NCBI RefSeq assembly: GCF_022370635.2 | Contig: NZ_CP092362.2 | Coordinates: 1,736,001 to 1,800,000 of the forward strand | From: Mycolicibacterium crocinum | Lineage (GTDB): Bacteria > Actinomycetota > Actinomycetes > Mycobacteriales > Mycobacteriaceae | Length of the DNA stretch: 64,000 nucleotides | Direction: 5' to 3' | In this document: one piece after another, positions 15,053-22,152 of the stretch | Numbering within the stretch: position 1 is the first letter of the stretch | How the letters are laid out: each line of letters begins with the position of its first letter | Notes under the pieces: generated by a model | What the model saw: only the letters and a program-made list of their open reading frames with translations | Told to the model about the DNA's origin: nothing | Database searches by the model: none | Program-made: the position numbers and the translations under genes

Positions 15053-15060
15053 GCGCCTTC
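15053..15060. repeat. Left 8-bp target duplication of IS256 copy A
   Basis: GCGCCTTC occurs immediately left of the element and again at 17999-18006 immediately right of it. IS256-family elements duplicate 8-9 bases on insertion. Together the two copies fix the boundaries and show that the element came into the HNH gene as a unit. Confidence 0.85.
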
Positions 15061-15129
15061 GGGACTGTGGATCTAACGGTGTTTCCGGCACTGACACGCT
15101 GAGTGATGCTCGGCGAGAAAGGTGCCGTG

Positions 15130-15942
15130 ATGACGACACTGGACGATGTGGCGAAGAAGAAGGCGGCTGAGCAGTCCGAAGGCCAGAAGGCTGCGGTCGA
15201 ACTGGTCCGATTGGCCCAGGAGCAGGGCTTGTCGCTGACCGGGCCCGACGGGCTGCTCAAGCAGTTGACCAAGACGGTCCTCGAGACCGCGCTCAATGAG
15301 GAGATGACCGAGCACCTCGGCTATGAGAAACACGACCCGCCCGAGACGGGGTCGGGCAACATCCGCAACGGCACCCGCACCAAGACGGTGCTGACCGACA
15401 CCACCGGCCCGGTCGAACTTGACGTGCCGCGCGATCGGGCATCGACCTTCGAGCCTCAGATCGTCAAGAAACGCCAACGTCGCCTGAACGGCGTGGACGA
15501 GGTCGTGCTGTCGCTGTACGCGAAGGGCTTGACCACCGGTGAGATCTCGGCGCACTTCGCCGAGATCTACGGGGCGTCGGTATCCAAAGAGACGATCAGC
15601 CGCATCACCGACAAGGTGCTTGAGGAGATGAACGACTGGTCGGTGCGACCGCTGGATGAAACCTACGCCGCGATCTTCATCGACGCGATCGTGGTCAAGG
15701 TCCGCGACGGCCAAGTCGCCAACCGGCCGTTCTACGCTGCCATCGGGGTCACCCTGGCCGGGGAACGCGACATCCTCGGCTTGTGGGCCGGCACCGGCGG
15801 GGAGGGCGCCAAGTTCTGGATGAGCGTGCTCACCGACCTACGCAACCGCGGCATCAAGGACACCTTCTTCGTCGTCTGCGACGGGCTCAAGGGACTGCCC
15901 GAGGTGGTGGGCAATGTGTGGCCGCAGGCGATCGTGCAGACG
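15130..15942 (+). pseudogene. IS256-family transposase A, N-terminal piece
   Basis: These 271 codons from ATG 15130 carry the N-terminal helical DNA-binding region and the first parts of the DDE domain: IFIDAIVVKVRDG holds the first catalytic Asp and VVCDGLKGLPE the second. The frame stops matching the family exactly where IS110 begins, after VQT. Read-through into IS110 adds about 70 unrelated residues and ends at 16158. Joined to 17494-17961 it gives a complete 426-residue transposase. The catalytic Glu is in the other piece, so this product would be inactive. Confidence 0.9.
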
Positions 15943-15943
15943 T

Positions 15944-16186
15944 CATCTATTAACAATGGGTGGGCCGGGATGGTCTCGGCGTTCACCTGCACCACCACGG
16001 GCAGGACCTGTGCAAACGCGTCACCTTCGAGGTCCACATGCAGACCTGTCCGCCCGTGGTGGCTGCGGGGCTTGGACCGGCCAGCGAGAGCAGCACCACC
16101 GGTAACAGCGGCGAGTGCCGAGATGAGGTTCCGGGCACGCCCCGTCATTGCAGCGTGAACCTTCGGATCGAAGGGATCTGACTGCA
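15944..16186 (+). ncRNA. Candidate bridge (seek) RNA of IS110 copy 1
   Basis: This non-coding left end precedes the transposase. It folds around an 11-bp perfect stem, CCACCACGGGC (15992-16002) with GCCCGTGGTGG (16052-16062), extended past a bulged A by GGAC/GTCC. A small ACCT-TCG-AGGT hairpin (16023-16033) tips the stem, leaving an internal loop. TGCAGACCTGT (16039-16049) equals the target strand of copy 2 across the CT core. Downstream, ACAGCGGCGAGT (16105-16116) nearly equals the right end of the element (ACAGCGGGAGT), and AGATGAG (16121-16127) is the complement of core plus left end (CTCATCT). These fit target and donor guides as known for IS621. RNA ends and loop assignment are unproven. 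Confidence 0.6.
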
Positions 16187-17407
16187 ATGAATCAGGATAG
16201 TCCGGACGGTGCAAGTCGTTTCTGGTGCGGCATCGATTGGGGCGGATGCTCCCATCACCTCTGCGTCCTCGACGACAACGGCCACCAGCTCCTCAGCCGA
16301 AAGATCGCGCACACCGTCGACGGTTTGATGGCCCTGGTCGAGGTGATCGCCTCGTTGGCCGGCTCGGTGCGCATCGCCATCGAACGTGCTGAGGGCTTGC
16401 TCGTCGAGCATCTGCAACAGCACTGTGGCGCCGAAATCTATTGCGTTTCACCGAAGATCTCGGCGCGTGCACGTGAACGGTATCGGATGGCGGCAGCCAA
16501 GTCCGACGAGTTCGATGCCTACGTTTTGGCCGACACATTGCGTCATCAGTACGCTCAGTGGCGGCCCTTAGCTGTTGCGTCACCGGCACTGGCCGAGCTC
16601 ATCGCGGTCAGCCGGGATCGTCAGCGCATCCTGGACATGCAAGTGGATACCGAGAATCGGCTGCGGTCGATCCTGGAGGCCTACCACCCCGCACCTTTGC
16701 ACCTGTTCTCCTCATTGGACCGTGACATCACCCTGGCGTTCATCCGGACCTTTCCCACTCCCGCGCAGGCGAGCAGGATCACGACTAGACGAATGGGTGG
16801 ATTCACCGGCCGACACGGCTACAGTGGCCGACAGAAACCCGAGACCCTCATCGCCCGGATGCAGCCTCATCTGTTGTCGGCCAGCGAAGGCACCGTCGCC
16901 GGTAAAGCTTTGGCGGCCAAAGCCTTTACAGAACAGCTCGCGCTACTCAACACTCATCTTCGAGCTCACGACAAGCGGCTGGGCGAGCTGCTCGACATGC
17001 ACCCGGACACCCCGATCTTCACCAGTTTCCCCGGTATCGGACCCGTCACCGCCGGCGTCTTGATCTCCGAAATGGGTGAACAGCGCAGCCGTTTCCCATC
17101 GGCGCCGTCGTTATTGGCCGAGACCGGCTTGGCTCCGGTCACCAAGGCCTCCGGGCGCACCCGTCAGGTGAGGTTCCGCTACGCCGCCAACCGGCGAATG
17201 CGCCACGCCATCGACTGGTGGATGTTCGTCGCCGTTCGTGAAGACCCTTGGTCGGCCGACATCTACGAACACGCCCGCGCCGCCGGCCAACCACACCATC
17301 GTGCTCTGCGTGGCCTGGGTGCGCGCTGGTGCCGCATTCTGTGGCGCTGCTGGCACGATCACGCCCTCTACGACCCGGTCATCCACCGCCGCGCCACCGC
17401 GGCGTAG
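16187..17407 (+). CDS. IS110-family DEDD/serine transposase (recombinase), copy 1
   Basis: This 406-residue RNA-guided recombinase has an N-terminal RuvC-like domain with the DEDD residues: IDWGG, then IERAEG, then KSDEFDAYVLAD. A linker coiled region follows, then the C-terminal Transposase_20 domain (FPGIGPVTAGVLISEMG), which in this family holds the nucleophilic serine near SAPSLLAETGLAP. ATG 16187 is chosen over TTG 16148 because AAGGGA lies 11 bases before it. All motifs are intact, so the element may be active. The protein should act with the RNA encoded just upstream to join donor and target DNA at a two-base core. Confidence 0.93.
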   Translation: MNQDSPDGASRFWCGIDWGGCSHHLCVLDDNGHQLLSRKIAHTVDGLMALVEVIASLAGSVRIAIERAEGLLVEHLQQHCGAEIYCVSPKISARARERYRMAAAKSDEFDAYVLADTLRHQYAQWRPLAVASPALAELIAVSRDRQRILDMQVDTENRLRSILEAYHPAPLHLFSSLDRDITLAFIRTFPTPAQASRITTRRMGGFTGRHGYSGRQKPETLIARMQPHLLSASEGTVAGKALAAKAFTEQLALLNTHLRAHDKRLGELLDMHPDTPIFTSFPGIGPVTAGVLISEMGEQRSRFPSAPSLLAETGLAPVTKASGRTRQVRFRYAANRRMRHAIDWWMFVAVREDPWSADIYEHARAAGQPHHRALRGLGARWCRILWRCWHDHALYDPVIHRRATAA

Positions 17408-17493
17408 TCCGCCGATCCCATCACCGCGCTGAGCAAACCGAGTCAGTCGCGGCGACCGAACACGTCCGCGATGAAAGGTTGACAGCGGGAGTC

Positions 17494-17961
17494 TGCATCA
17501 TTCATCTGCTGCGCAACACTTTTCGGCTCACGTCCCGCAAGTACTGGGACGAGATCAAGCGCGACGTCAAGCCGATCTACACTGCGGTCAACGCGACCGC
17601 GGCTCGGGCGGCGTTCGACGAGCTGGCCGAGAAATGGGGGCAGCGCTACCCGGCAGTGATCCGGCTCTGGGACAACGCCTGGGCGGAGTTCATTCCGTTC
17701 CTGGACTACGACGTGGAGATCCGGCGAGTGATCTGCTCGACGAACGCGATCGAGTCGCTCAACGCCCGCTACCGCCGCGCGATCAAGGCCCGCGGACACT
17801 TCCCCTCCGAGCAGGCGGCGCTCAAGTGCCTGTATCTGGTGACCCGATCACTGGACCCGACCGGTGTCGGCAGGGCACGATGGACGATGCGGTGGAAACC
17901 TGCCCTCAATGCGTTCGCGATCACCTTCGCCGACCGATTCCCGGCAGCCGAAACCTACTGA
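17494..17961 (+). pseudogene. IS256-family transposase A, C-terminal piece
   Basis: These 156 codons resume exactly in frame with the N-terminal piece, at the Cys of the conserved VQTCIIHL motif. The piece carries HLLRNTFR and the ICSTNAIESLNARYRR signature, with the catalytic Glu in NAIESLN. It has no start codon of its own and is not expected to be translated. The stop is followed by the right inverted repeat. Confidence 0.9.
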
Positions 17962-17998
17962 TGAAAAACGCCGGAAACACCGTTAGCGAGATAGACCC

Positions 17999-18006
17999 GC
18001 GCCTTC
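17999..18006. repeat. Right 8-bp target duplication of IS256 copy A
   Basis: GCGCCTTC matches 15053-15060. It lies directly after the right inverted repeat, which ends in CCC, and inside the codons for the PFEPKA segment of the HNH protein. Confidence 0.85.
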
Positions 18007-19118
18007 GGCTCAAACGGTTGATACCACTTCCATTGGGCGCGTTCGCCGATGGGGCCGCGGCAGGGTGGGACGTTTGGTGGTGGATGGTTGGGTGGGCGGG
18101 CAAGTGACCTGGACGTGAGGGGGTCGCCGTCGCTGTCGACGACGGTCAGCTGGTGCGCGGGTCCGCTGATGGTGATGTCGCCGCGGTGGTGTGCGCGGTG
18201 GTGGTAGGGGCATAGCAGGACGAGGTTGTGGAGTTCGGTGGGGCCGCCGTTTTCCCAGTGCTGGATGTGGTGGGCGTGTAGTCCTCGGGTGGCGCCGCAG
18301 CCGGGGACTGCGCAGGTGGTGTCGCGGTGTTCGAGGGCGCGGCGGAGTCGCCGGTTGATGGTGCGGGTGGTGCGGCCGGCGCCGAGGGGTTGGCCGTCGC
18401 GTTCGAACCACACTTCGCAGGTGGTGTCGCAGGTGAGGTAGTGGCGGTCGGCCTGGGTGAGGAGGGGTCCCAAATGGAGTTCGCCGATGCGCTTGTCGAC
18501 GTCGAGGTGCACGACGACGGTGGTGCGTTGGCCGTGGGGGCGGCGGGCGACGTCGGTGTCCCAGCCGGCCTCGATGAGGCTCATGAACGCATCGGTGGTG
18601 TTGGGCAGGGGTGGTGCGTTGTCGGGGGAGTCGGTGTCGTGGTCGCGTTTCCAGTCGGCGATCAGCGCATCGTGATGGGATTGCAGGGCGGCGTCGACGG
18701 TGGCTGCTTCGACGTTGGGCACGGTGATATTCCAAGTGGTGGACTCGTCGCCGACGGTCTTGCGGATGCAGCGTGGTGGGTCGGGTTGGGGGCCGGGTTT
18801 GGGGGGTCGGGGTTGGAGTTTGATGGCTTTGCGTAGTTGGCTGACGGTGGCGACGGAAGCCAGTTGTGCGTAGTGCTCGTCGGATCCGTCGGCGGCGCGT
18901 TCGGCGATGACGCCGACTTGATCGACGGAGAGCTGGCCCTCGCGCAAGGCCGCCACGCAGCGCGGGAACTCGGGGAGTCGGTGTGCGACTGCGGAAATGG
19001 TGTTGGCGTTGGCCGTCGAGGTGCCCAGTTTCCAGGCCACCACCGCGGCGACGGAGCGTGCCCCGGTCATGCCAGACAGGTTGCCGTGGTCCAGTTCGGC
19101 GACCAGTTCCACGATGCG

Positions 19119-19126
19119 CCCGTCGA
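19119..19126. repeat. Left 8-bp target duplication of IS256 copy B
   Basis: CCCGTCGA lies directly left of the second IS256 element and again at 22145-22152 directly right of it. It encodes part of the AIDG/LDG segment of the HNH protein, and removing one copy restores the frame. Confidence 0.85.
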
Positions 19127-19188
19127 GAGCGTGTCAGATGGTTTGTGTGAGGTAGTGGTGCTCCCGATTTGAAAGCCGAGACACACTG

Positions 19189-20022
19189 ATGACCGTGGTG
19201 GATAAGAAGCTTGAGCGTGAAGAACGTCGGCGTGAGCAGCGAGCGGGTGTAGAAGCCCTGGAGGCCTCGGGCGCTCTTGATGAGCTGTACGCGATGATCG
19301 ACGCTGGCGAGGTCACTCTCGAGGGTAAGGATGGATTGATCCAGCAGCTGATCAAGGCGGGCCTGGAACGGGGGTTGCAGGCCGAGCTCAGCGATCACCT
19401 CGGTTACGACAAGGGCGATCCCGAGGCTGCGTTGTTCCCGAACTCACGCAACGGCTCGTCGGCGAAGACGGTGGCCACCAGCGTCGGCGATGTCGAACTG
19501 GCGATCCCGCGTGATCGCGACGCCACGTTCACCCCCACGCTGGTGCCCAAGGGCTCGCGCCGAGTTGGGGGGCTCGACGACATGATCGTCTCGCTGTATG
19601 CCGGCGGGATGACGGTGCGCGATATCGAGCATCACCTCGCATCGACGATCGGGACCGAGATCAGTCGCGAGACGATCTCCAAGATCACCGACGAGGTCCT
19701 CGAGGAGGTGCTGGCCTGGCAGCGTCGCCCGCTCGAATCGTTCTACCCGGTGATCTATCTCGACGCGATCGTGGTCAAGGTCCGTGACGGTGCCCATGTG
19801 CGTAACAAGGCCGCCCACATCGCCGTTGGCGTCGATATGGAGGGCGTGAAACACGTTCTGGGGATCTGGATTCAGGCCACCGAGGGCGCGAAGTTCTGGG
19901 CCGGGGTGTGCGCCGAGTTGGCCAATCGTGGTGTCGCCGACGTCCTGATCGTGTGCTGCGACGGACTGACCGGATTCCCCGAGGCGATCGAGGCGACCTG
20001 GCCAGACTCGTTGGTGCAGACC
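19189..20022 (+). pseudogene. IS256-family transposase B, N-terminal piece
   Basis: These 278 codons from ATG 19189 have a charged N-terminus and the DDE core segments VIYLDAIVVKVRDG (first Asp) and IVCCDGLTGFPEA (second Asp). The family match ends after LVQT, at the IS110 junction. With 21574-22101 it makes a complete 453-residue transposase. It is only family-related to transposase A, yet it is cut at the same alignment position. Confidence 0.9.
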
Positions 20023-20023
20023 T

Positions 20024-20266
20024 CATCTATTAACAATGGGTGGGCCGGGATGGTCTCGGCGTTCACCTGCACCACCACGGGCAGGACCTGTGCAAACGCG
20101 TCACCTTCGAGGTCCACATGCAGACCTGTCCGCCCGTGGTGGCTGCGGGGCTTGGACCGGCCAGCGAGAGCAGCACCACCGGTAACAGCGGCGAGTGCCG
20201 AGATGAGGTTCCGGGCACGCCCCGTCATTGCAGCGTGAACCTTCGGATCGAAGGGATCTGACTGCA
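20024..20266 (+). ncRNA. Candidate bridge (seek) RNA of IS110 copy 2
   Basis: Identical to the candidate at 15944-16186. The target-like segment TGCAGACCTGT is at 20119-20129, the right-end-like segment at 20185-20196, and AGATGAG, complementary to the left end, at 20201-20207. The match to this copy's own insertion site is exact over 11 bases; for copy 1 it is 9 of 11, with one mismatch in the core. Confidence 0.6.
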
Positions 20267-21487
20267 ATGAATCAGGATAGTCCGGACGGTGCAAGTCGTT
20301 TCTGGTGCGGCATCGATTGGGGCGGATGCTCCCATCACCTCTGCGTCCTCGACGACAACGGCCACCAGCTCCTCAGCCGAAAGATCGCGCACACCGTCGA
20401 CGGTTTGATGGCCCTGGTCGAGGTGATCGCCTCGTTGGCCGGCTCGGTGCGCATCGCCATCGAACGTGCTGAGGGCTTGCTCGTCGAGCATCTGCAACAG
20501 CACTGTGGCGCCGAAATCTATTGCGTTTCACCGAAGATCTCGGCGCGTGCACGTGAACGGTATCGGATGGCGGCAGCCAAGTCCGACGAGTTCGATGCCT
20601 ACGTTTTGGCCGACACATTGCGTCATCAGTACGCTCAGTGGCGGCCCTTAGCTGTTGCGTCACCGGCACTGGCCGAGCTCATCGCGGTCAGCCGGGATCG
20701 TCAGCGCATCCTGGACATGCAAGTGGATACCGAGAATCGGCTGCGGTCGATCCTGGAGGCCTACCACCCCGCACCTTTGCACCTGTTCTCCTCATTGGAC
20801 CGTGACATCACCCTGGCGTTCATCCGGACCTTTCCCACTCCCGCGCAGGCGAGCAGGATCACGACTAGACGAATGGGTGGATTCACCGGCCGACACGGCT
20901 ACAGTGGCCGACAGAAACCCGAGACCCTCATCGCCCGGATGCAGCCTCATCTGTTGTCGGCCAGCGAAGGCACCGTCGCCGGTAAAGCTTTGGCGGCCAA
21001 AGCCTTTACAGAACAGCTCGCGCTACTCAACACTCATCTTCGAGCTCACGACAAGCGGCTGGGCGAGCTGCTCGACATGCACCCGGACACCCCGATCTTC
21101 ACCAGTTTCCCCGGTATCGGACCCGTCACCGCCGGCGTCTTGATCTCCGAAATGGGTGAACAGCGCAGCCGTTTCCCATCGGCGCCGTCGTTATTGGCCG
21201 AGACCGGCTTGGCTCCGGTCACCAAGGCCTCCGGGCGCACCCGTCAGGTGAGGTTCCGCTACGCCGCCAACCGGCGAATGCGCCACGCCATCGACTGGTG
21301 GATGTTCGTCGCCGTTCGTGAAGACCCTTGGTCGGCCGACATCTACGAACACGCCCGCGCCGCCGGCCAACCACACCATCGTGCTCTGCGTGGCCTGGGT
21401 GCGCGCTGGTGCCGCATTCTGTGGCGCTGCTGGCACGATCACGCCCTCTACGACCCGGTCATCCACCGCCGCGCCACCGCGGCGTAG
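20267..21487 (+). CDS. IS110-family DEDD/serine transposase (recombinase), copy 2
   Basis: This 406-residue protein is identical to copy 1, with the same ATG and AAGGGA ribosome site. The catalytic DEDD residues and the Transposase_20 domain are complete. Two identical intact copies mean that either could supply recombinase and guide RNA for further movement. Confidence 0.93.
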   Translation: MNQDSPDGASRFWCGIDWGGCSHHLCVLDDNGHQLLSRKIAHTVDGLMALVEVIASLAGSVRIAIERAEGLLVEHLQQHCGAEIYCVSPKISARARERYRMAAAKSDEFDAYVLADTLRHQYAQWRPLAVASPALAELIAVSRDRQRILDMQVDTENRLRSILEAYHPAPLHLFSSLDRDITLAFIRTFPTPAQASRITTRRMGGFTGRHGYSGRQKPETLIARMQPHLLSASEGTVAGKALAAKAFTEQLALLNTHLRAHDKRLGELLDMHPDTPIFTSFPGIGPVTAGVLISEMGEQRSRFPSAPSLLAETGLAPVTKASGRTRQVRFRYAANRRMRHAIDWWMFVAVREDPWSADIYEHARAAGQPHHRALRGLGARWCRILWRCWHDHALYDPVIHRRATAA

Positions 21488-21573
21488 TCCGCCGATCCCA
21501 TCACCGCGCTGAGCAAACCGAGTCAGTCGCGGCGACCGAACACGTCCGCGATGAAAGGTTGACAGCGGGAGTC

Positions 21574-22101
21574 TGTGTGGTGCACTTGATCCGCGCAGCG
21601 ATGCGTTTCGTGTCCTACACCCAGCGAAAGGCCGTCGCGGCCGCACTCAAAACGGTGTATCAGGCGCCCGACGCCGAGGCCGCTAGGGCGGCGTTGGACG
21701 CGTTCGCGGCCTCCGATCTCGGTCAAGCCAACCCGAACACGGTGCGGGTCTTCGAGGACGCGTGGGAGCGGTTCACTCCCTTCTTGGCGTTCCCGCCGAT
21801 GCTGCGCCGGGTCATCTACACCACCAACGCCATCGAGTCGCTGAACTACCAACTGCGCAAGATCATCAAAAACCGCGGCCACTTCCCCAACGACGCGGCG
21901 GTGGTCAAGCTGCTGTGGCTGGCGATCTGCAACATCGAAGACAAACGGGCCCGCGACCGCGCCAAGGAACGCGGGCGCGGGCTCGGCACGAAACGCACCG
22001 CCGAAGCCCGCCTCGTCGAGGGCCAGATCACCACTAACTGGAAACAAGCCCTCGCCCAACTCGCCCTGGCCTACCCCGAACGAATCAACCCCTACCTCTA
22101 A
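21574..22101 (+). pseudogene. IS256-family transposase B, C-terminal piece
   Basis: These 176 codons resume in frame at the Cys of VQTCVVHL and carry IYTTNAIESLNYQLRK with the catalytic Glu. The C-terminal tail is basic (DKRARDRAKERGRG), unlike transposase A. There is no start codon of its own. The stop at 22099-22101 is followed by the right inverted repeat ending at 22144. Confidence 0.9.
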
Positions 22102-22144
22102 CCCCAACGAGCACAATTACTTACACAAAAATCTTGACAAGCTC

Positions 22145-22152
22145 CCCGTCGA
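22145..22152. repeat. Right 8-bp target duplication of IS256 copy B
   Basis: CCCGTCGA matches 19119-19126 and lies directly after the right inverted repeat of element B. Confidence 0.85.

What the first reader, a model, noticed from the sequence alone, without database searches (positions are those of the whole stretch)
15943..21573. Two different IS256 transposase genes are hit by the same IS110 at the same codon
The two IS256 elements have different ends, different target duplications and only family-level protein similarity. Yet each is interrupted by an identical 1,551-bp IS110 element precisely after the VQT codons and before the conserved Cys of VQTC(I/V)xHL. Removing the insert restores both reading frames exactly (426 and 453 aa). 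Random insertion would not hit the same alignment position twice. This points to a mobile element that preys on IS256 transposases by recognising their most conserved DNA stretch, between the second catalytic Asp and the catalytic Glu.
Basis: partly seen in the sequence, partly recalled or inferred. Interest (0 to 1): 0.88.

Follow-up and report, generated by a model that had tools for sequence, protein, structure and literature searches.

The report
RNA-guided jumping gene hunting IS256 transposases
A small jumping gene of mycobacteria and other actinobacteria sits, in all 32 copies whose left edge could be read, at the same active-site codon of the enzyme gene of a rival jumping gene (IS256), and it is likely steered there by a guide RNA whose letters differ in step with the rival's codons.

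Summary
The 1,551-bp IS110 element has 8 identical copies in this genome (genus Mycobacterium), all in IS256 transposase genes of four types, at the junction of V-Q-T and the Cys codon of the CxxH motif. Empty twins of both window hosts occur in the same genome and match the flanks letter for letter. With relatives (53-97% recombinase identity) from Mycobacterium, Streptomyces, Sinomonas, Microlunatus, Subtercola, Pseudonocardia, Tessaracoccus, Mycolicibacter and a Chloroflexota MAG, 32 of 32 readable left junctions lie at this codon, in 21 distinct IS256 genes; seven fragmentary hits are not counted. One clade sits in another IS256 subfamily at the homologous W-Q-R|C codons. The left end looks like an IS110 bridge RNA: its target guides fit VQTC codons in one class and WQRC codons in the other, and two donor guides changed together with the element's own end. 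21 more distant IS110 loci are not at this site. Best explanation: bridge-RNA-guided insertion specialised on IS256 active-site codons. Guidance by RNA is known for IS110; this prey and the guide switch were not found in the papers searched. RNA and recombination are untested.

The parts
15944..17494 (+). IS110 element, copy 1 (1,551 bp with one copy of the core CT)
   Evidence: identical in 8 genome copies; boundaries set by comparison with intact host twins.
20024..21574 (+). IS110 element, copy 2
   Evidence: flanks equal intact twins L020-L024.
16187..17407 (+). IS110 recombinase gene, copy 1 (406 aa from ATG; TTG starts lie upstream)
   Evidence: PF01548 E 2.8e-31 and PF02371 E 6.7e-15; IS621 recombinase 8wt6 E 3.3e-06.
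20267..21487 (+). IS110 recombinase gene, copy 2
   Evidence: Identical to copy 1.
15992..16062 (+). Predicted bridge-RNA target-binding loop (outer stem 15992-16002 with 16052-16062)
   Evidence: 11-nt perfect inverted repeat; stem kept by paired changes over 14 elements.
16010..16017 (+). Predicted left target guide GTGCAAAC
   Evidence: Pairs with the target half GTGCAGAC at 7 of 8 places.
16038..16043 (+). Predicted right target guide ATGCAG
   Evidence: Pairs with CT+GCAT at 6 of 6; with CT+GTGT of copy 2 by four standard and two G-U pairs.
16122..16127 (+). Predicted right donor guide GATGAG
   Evidence: Complement of core CT plus element start CATC; compensatory changes in L092 and L095.
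15934..15943 (+). Left target half GTGCAGAC plus target core GT in host a (codons V-Q-T and first base of Cys)
   Evidence: empty twin reads GTGCAGACGTGCATC.
17495..17498 (+). Right target half GCAT in host a
17479..17484 (+). TTGACA near the right end, a predicted -35 box of a promoter that would form in the excised circle
   Evidence: Present in 19 of 21 elements; the -10-like letters across the junction are weak, at best 4 of 6.
15061..17998 (+). Interrupted IS256-type element, type a (8-bp duplications 15053-15060 and 17999-18006)
19127..22144 (+). Interrupted IS256-type element, type b (8-bp duplications 19119-19126 and 22145-22152)

Best explanation
This is an IS110-family element whose 32 of 32 copies with a readable left junction lie at one codon position, at the Cys codon of the CxxH motif, in IS256-family transposase genes, and it is predicted to be steered there by a bridge RNA encoded in its left end. 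Shown by sequence: the position, in 21 distinct host genes; intact empty twins; guides that fit the element's own target in two classes (VQTC and WQRC); donor guides that changed with the element's end in two relatives; a left-end RNA fold kept by paired changes. Inferred from the published IS621 mechanism: the RNA is made from a promoter formed in the excised circle, and the recombinase joins circle and target at the core dinucleotide. Inferred: each insertion disables one IS256 transposase gene. The niche would last because active-site codons change little, IS256 is multicopy and spreads by itself, and losing one copy should not harm the cell.
For: Position: 8 of 8 own copies in four host types, 32 of 32 in all, 21 host genes at 95%. 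In the 16 genomes searched for every copy 26 of 26 full or near-full clade copies are at the codon. Guides: 10-14 of 14 Watson-Crick pairs with the own target in 24 of 24 rows, and at most 3 of 3,990 position pairs in the same left end (itself included) do as well (at most 10 if G-U pairs count). Guide classes do not fit each other's targets: own means 11.8 and 13.2 of 14, crossed means 7.5 and 7.1. Fold: z -4.28; 18 of 35 consensus pairs with both-sides changes, 14 of 30 without the five element-end/donor-guide pairs. Donor guide compensation in L092 and L095. This genome's intact WQRC-type IS256 copies L016 and L017 are not hit. [quoted passage not shown]
Against: No RNA or recombination was measured. 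The left guide has A opposite the third base of CAG codons in 15 of 22 VQTC rows, a mismatch, and faces the third base of the Val codon without a pair in several rows. Two WQRC rows mismatch one right-guide base. The letters after the left guide do not pair with the core in the window element. The left donor guide could not be placed with certainty in the window element. The VQTC class is one side of only a weak branch (59/75), and the guide change is probably a single event. Copies within one host type may have moved with their IS256, so independent insertions are fewer than copies. One whole-genome site match outside IS256 exists and is empty, as are 9 in IS256.
Confidence: 0.92

Rival explanations
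1. One old insertion into an IS256 gene was carried along as IS256 copied itself and diverged, so the shared position is descent and not targeting.
For: Copies within host type a and within type b have near-identical flanks and different target duplications, so some may have moved together with the IS256.
Against: Within this genome the element is identical in four host types whose sequences next to the junction differ, and intact twins with no difference to the flanks exist for a and b. Two relative classes sit in different IS256 subfamilies. Guides fit the local codons.
Confidence: 0.03
2. The element follows a short sequence that happens to be common in IS256 genes; there is no specialisation on IS256 and copies elsewhere are simply unsampled.
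For: IS110 targets are short (11 bp in IS621; PMC11208160 passages), IS256 is multicopy here, and the sample is modest because the element is rare.
Against: The consensus site occurs 10 times empty in the genome, 9 in IS256 genes, so it is nearly private to IS256. The WQRC class, with other guides, is again in IS256 at the homologous codon. No counted copy lies elsewhere (32 of 32).
Confidence: 0.05
3. The recombinase protein alone recognises the IS256 site and the guide match is coincidence.
For: RNA guidance was not tested here.
Against: In 24 of 24 rows the guide places match the own target as well as or better than nearly all other places of the left end, and the guides differ between the classes as the targets do. 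RNA guidance is established for IS621, a relative by family (PMC11208160).
Confidence: 0.02

Closest known systems
IS621 and the IS110 bridge-RNA elements (PMC11208160, passages read; PMC11208158, listing and start of abstract only)
   Same: DEDD plus Transposase_20 recombinase, RNA region upstream of the gene, target and donor guides, short core, promoter-like letters across the circle junction.
   Different: IS621 aims at REP sequences with a CT core; this element sits in codons of another transposase and tolerates any of C, G or A as first core base on the target side.
IS4321/IS5075 in Tn21-family terminal repeats (known here from reference lists)
   Same: An element of the wider family aimed at another transposon.
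   Different: IS1111 type with subterminal inverted repeats and a target at transposon ends; here an IS110 type in active-site codons.
ISKpn4, ISPst6 and other IS1111-attC elements (PMC11187229, passages)
   Same: RNA-guided choice of a target that belongs to another mobile system.
   Different: RNA downstream of the gene, subterminal repeats, attC target.

Membership tests
IS110 family | DEDD_Tnp_IS110 (PF01548) followed by Transposase_20 (PF02371) | tested here: met
   E 2.8e-31 and 6.7e-15, both above the curated cut-off.
IS110 family | Conserved acidic residues of the DEDD domain and the Ser of the C-terminal domain | tested here: met
   D17, E66, D107, D110 and S322 are invariant over 5 and over 10 relatives; which of them are catalytic is recalled, not tested.
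IS110 group (not IS1111) | Non-coding RNA region upstream of the gene, no subterminal inverted repeats | tested here: met
   243 nt before the ATG at 16187; none of the 25 longest of 41 inverted pairs joins the two ends.
IS110 bridge-RNA system | Left-end RNA fold with a target loop whose guides fit the target | tested here: met
IS110 bridge-RNA system | Donor loop with both donor guides | tested here: inconclusive
   The right donor guide fits, with two compensatory cases; the left donor guide is clear in relatives (CAGYGGGAGT) but ambiguous in the window element.
IS110 bridge-RNA system | RNA bound by the recombinase; circle intermediate; guided recombination | not testable with these tools
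   Needs experiment.
IS256 family (the hosts) | Mutator-type transposase with CxxH motif, terminal inverted repeats, 8-bp duplication | tested here: met
   PF00872; intact twin matches 6xg8, Mutator family transposase, E 1.9e-95, with VQTCIIH on YQRCIVH; 8 of 8 own hosts with 8-bp duplications and imperfect terminal repeats. Elsewhere clear in 4 (L076, L077, L080, L089) and weaker in 1 (L090) of 20 hosts tested.

The most novel reading that the evidence does not exclude
An RNA-guided transposon lineage that lives as a predator of another transposon family: its bridge RNA has stayed on the CxxH active-site codons of IS256 transposases while the predator's own protein diverged by more than 45%, was rewritten when the prey subfamily changed (VQTC to WQRC), and carries G and U opposite degenerate codon positions so that one RNA covers synonymous escape variants; each hit silences an IS256 and could be undone by exact excision.
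Probability: 0.6. Interest if true: 0.87.

Novelty: new variant of a known kind. Interest (0 to 1): 0.78.

Why it matters
If right, it is a natural, replicated case of bridge-RNA guides following a protein-coding target: two guide classes, one homologous codon position, 21 host genes. It makes three questions testable: how guides are rewritten in nature, whether prey escapes by synonymous change, and whether one transposon keeps another in check. It also supplies two natural sets of guide, core and target for work on bridge recombinases, with a relaxed first core base.

Tried and rejected
Viral contigs: no relative. Surveys of 394 class and 401 family genomes found no member of the clade besides this genome; the other hits at E <= 1e-90 (4 genomes, 3) were more distant elements of 316-345 bits. 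Free matching on shuffled left ends had little power (in several elements up to most of 300 shuffles matched as well) and mis-set the guide places of the WQRC class and of L087 and L095; it was replaced by fixed places. A first tree with wrong outgroup frames and two decayed rows was replaced. The idea that the hosts of L081/L082 are whole-gene chimeras was dropped: over 600 nt the left half is 85% like type a and 68% like type c. The isolated target loop folds only weakly (z -1.97 in the window; about 0 in two relatives whose stretch was cut before the 3' arm, so uninformative). The M. hassiacum lead could not be followed: the repeat I used as a tag is in none of 396 genus genomes searched.

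Literature: searches found 0 papers; others (20 of 29 listed) listed none that, from title and start of abstract, describes an IS110 aimed at IS256 genes. Opened by passages only: PMC11208160, PMC11187229, PMC2516522, PMC10832570, PMC3942029, PMC7780238. The library lacks most subscription papers and all preprints, so absence here is weak.

Rows dropped before the 32-of-32 count: L085, L094, L096 (same record as L053), L097, L098 (same place as L134), L099, L100; the left end or most of the element is missing. Of these, L096 has IS256 halves on both sides and L097 one short IS256 match, while L085, L094, L099 and L100 gave no IS256 match and L134 none; the right junctions of L085 and L097 read CVVHL and CIIHL, that of L094 is not clearly IS256. 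The second Pseudonocardia plasmid (H3, H7) was not read. L049, L051, L052 and L055 are the same places as L080, L082, L081 and L078. L093 has no right end, so right-side counts are out of 28.
Full report
WHAT IS THERE. The window holds two identical IS110 elements of 1,551 bp (15944-17494 and 20024-21574). Each splits an IS256-type (PF00872) transposase gene. The genome is of the genus Mycobacterium in the GTDB sense, judged from named relatives. It holds 8 copies, identical over the whole element. All 8 lie at one place: the left flank reads V-Q-T, the right flank continues with Cys, and the core is the third base of the Thr codon plus the T of the Cys codon. The hosts are of four kinds: a (3 copies), b (3), c (1) and d (1). 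Each host copy has its own perfect 8-bp duplication, all eight different. Intact twins of a (L018, L019) and of b (L020-L024) are in the same genome and equal the flanks of the two window copies without a difference. Two other type-a copies share one private base, so type a was hit twice or one copy drifted before it moved.

IS IT MORE THAN CHANCE. The site GTNCARACNTGYRT occurs 10 times empty in the genome; 9 lie in IS256 matches and one (C1:4296872) does not. With the 8 occupied sites, 17 of 18 are in IS256 genes. Copies with a readable left junction: 8 here, 15 of the 22 loci, and 9 more (L047, four in G139, L050, L076, L077, L078). All 32 lie at the codon. The 29 copies fall into 21 host genes at 95% identity of the left half; the other three share the flank of L048. 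In 16 genomes all copies were sought: 26 of 26 full or near-full clade copies are at the codon; besides these, a truncated copy in G029 lies in an IS256 (L053/L096) and a short fragment in G095 (L134) has no IS256 nearby and cannot be judged.

TWO GUIDE CLASSES. Relatives at about 53-55% identity (Pseudonocardia, Mycolicibacter, Tessaracoccus, a Chloroflexota MAG, the M. chubuense plasmid) sit in another IS256 subfamily at the homologous codons W-Q-R|C. On the recombinase tree the WQRC rows (4) and the outgroup rows (7) are each one side of a well-supported branch; the VQTC rows (10) are one side of a weak one (59/75). Streptomyces, Sinomonas, Microlunatus and Subtercola share the VQTC class with Mycobacterium, while Mycolicibacter and M. 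chubuense, mycobacterial relatives, carry WQRC elements; this suggests transfer between hosts.

THE RNA. The left non-coding end (243 nt before the ATG) folds better than its shuffles (z -4.28, 0 of 200). Over 14 elements the consensus fold has 35 pairs, 18 with a both-sides change; five of the 35 pair the element start with the donor guide and are better read as guide-to-DNA pairing, leaving 14 of 30. The fold has a 5' hairpin, a stem with internal loop and apical hairpin, and a 3' part. The left target guide lies on the 5' side of the internal loop, 64-68 nt after the element start, the right guide on the 3' side. VQTC-class guides are (G/A/T)T(G/T)CA(A/G)AC and A(T/C)(G/A)CAG; WQRC-class guides are TGGCAGCG and CGGCAG. 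Guides and own target make 10-14 of 14 Watson-Crick pairs in 24 of 24 rows (four of the 8 own copies, one per host type, plus 20 others); at most 3 of 3,990 position pairs of the same left end, itself included, do as well, or at most 10 if G-U pairs count (the printed distance for L083 and L084 is wrong because the same letters occur twice, the score is not affected). Own means are 11.8 (18 VQTC rows) and 13.2 (6 WQRC rows) of 14; VQTC guides on WQRC targets reach 7.5 (at most 10), WQRC guides on VQTC targets 7.1 (at most 8). The right guide has G opposite the third base of the Cys codon in 27 of 28 rows and, in the VQTC class, U opposite the first base of the next codon in 21 of 22; 20 of these 21 form a standard or G-U pair.

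DONOR SIDE. Of 22 elements read, 20 start CATC, and their right donor guide is GATGAG (GACGAG in L088 and L050). L095 starts TATC and has GATAAG; L092 starts CACT and has AGTGAG. The right core is CT in 28 of 28 rows; the left core is CT, GT or AT (14, 13, 2) and so follows the host codon. TTGACA stands near the right end in 19 of 21 elements, as a -35 box of a circle promoter would; the -10-like letters are weak.

WHAT IT HITS. The Cys belongs to the C/D(2)H signature after the second catalytic Asp of Mutator-type transposases (PMC3942029, passages). In the ISCth4 transposase the CxxH motif stands at the active site, and the equivalent His of Hermes contacts the scissile phosphate (PMC7780238, passages; the alignment is to 6xg8, which I recall to be that protein). 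Over 13 VQTC hosts the guided 14 nt have a mean identity of 0.83 against 0.62 for all windows; 6 of 934 windows are as high.

CONTROLS. Of 21 loci of more distant IS110 elements (11, 10; several are copies of one element) none is at this site; one (L115) lies in an IS256 at another place and orientation while its near-identical sister L113 does not. These controls rest on five IS256 queries within 1.5-2 kb. The genome's intact WQRC-type IS256 copies L016 and L017 are not hit, as VQTC guides predict.

LIMITS. No RNA or recombination was measured. The left guide mismatches CAG codons in 15 of 22 VQTC rows, two WQRC rows mismatch one right-guide base, and the left donor guide is uncertain in the window element. 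Independent insertions cannot be counted exactly, the guide change is probably one event, and the element is rare.

VERDICT. The feature is real and not random. The best reading is an IS110 lineage specialised on IS256 active-site codons by its bridge RNA. The mechanism is known; the prey, the codon-following guides and the class switch were not found in the named searches.

Noticed in passing
L115 and L113 (G182): Another, more distant IS110 has one copy inside an IS256 at a different place and orientation and one copy outside IS256.
   Followed up: partly
   Followed up: no
L122 (G000 C1:4296872-4296885): The only whole-genome match to the target consensus outside IS256; it is empty and lies outside the larger ORFs that look like genes.
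   Followed up: partly
L076 2161-4467 (M. rufum plasmid): The IS256 left half reads through the IS110 left end into the recombinase as one open frame of 769 codons.
   Followed up: no
L078 (M. chubuense plasmid pMYCCH.01): Three-fold nesting: an IS256 holds the IS110, whose 3' part is split by a further insertion that looks like an IS3-type element (recalled from the protein letters, not tested); the IS110 right junction reappears downstream.
   Followed up: partly
L081 and L082, last stretch left of the junction: The host is type-a-like overall, but the last few dozen bases before the junction resemble type c, possibly a local conversion.
   Followed up: partly
window 17955-19112, minus strand: A DUF222/HNH protein gene lies between the two interrupted IS256 elements.
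   Followed up: no
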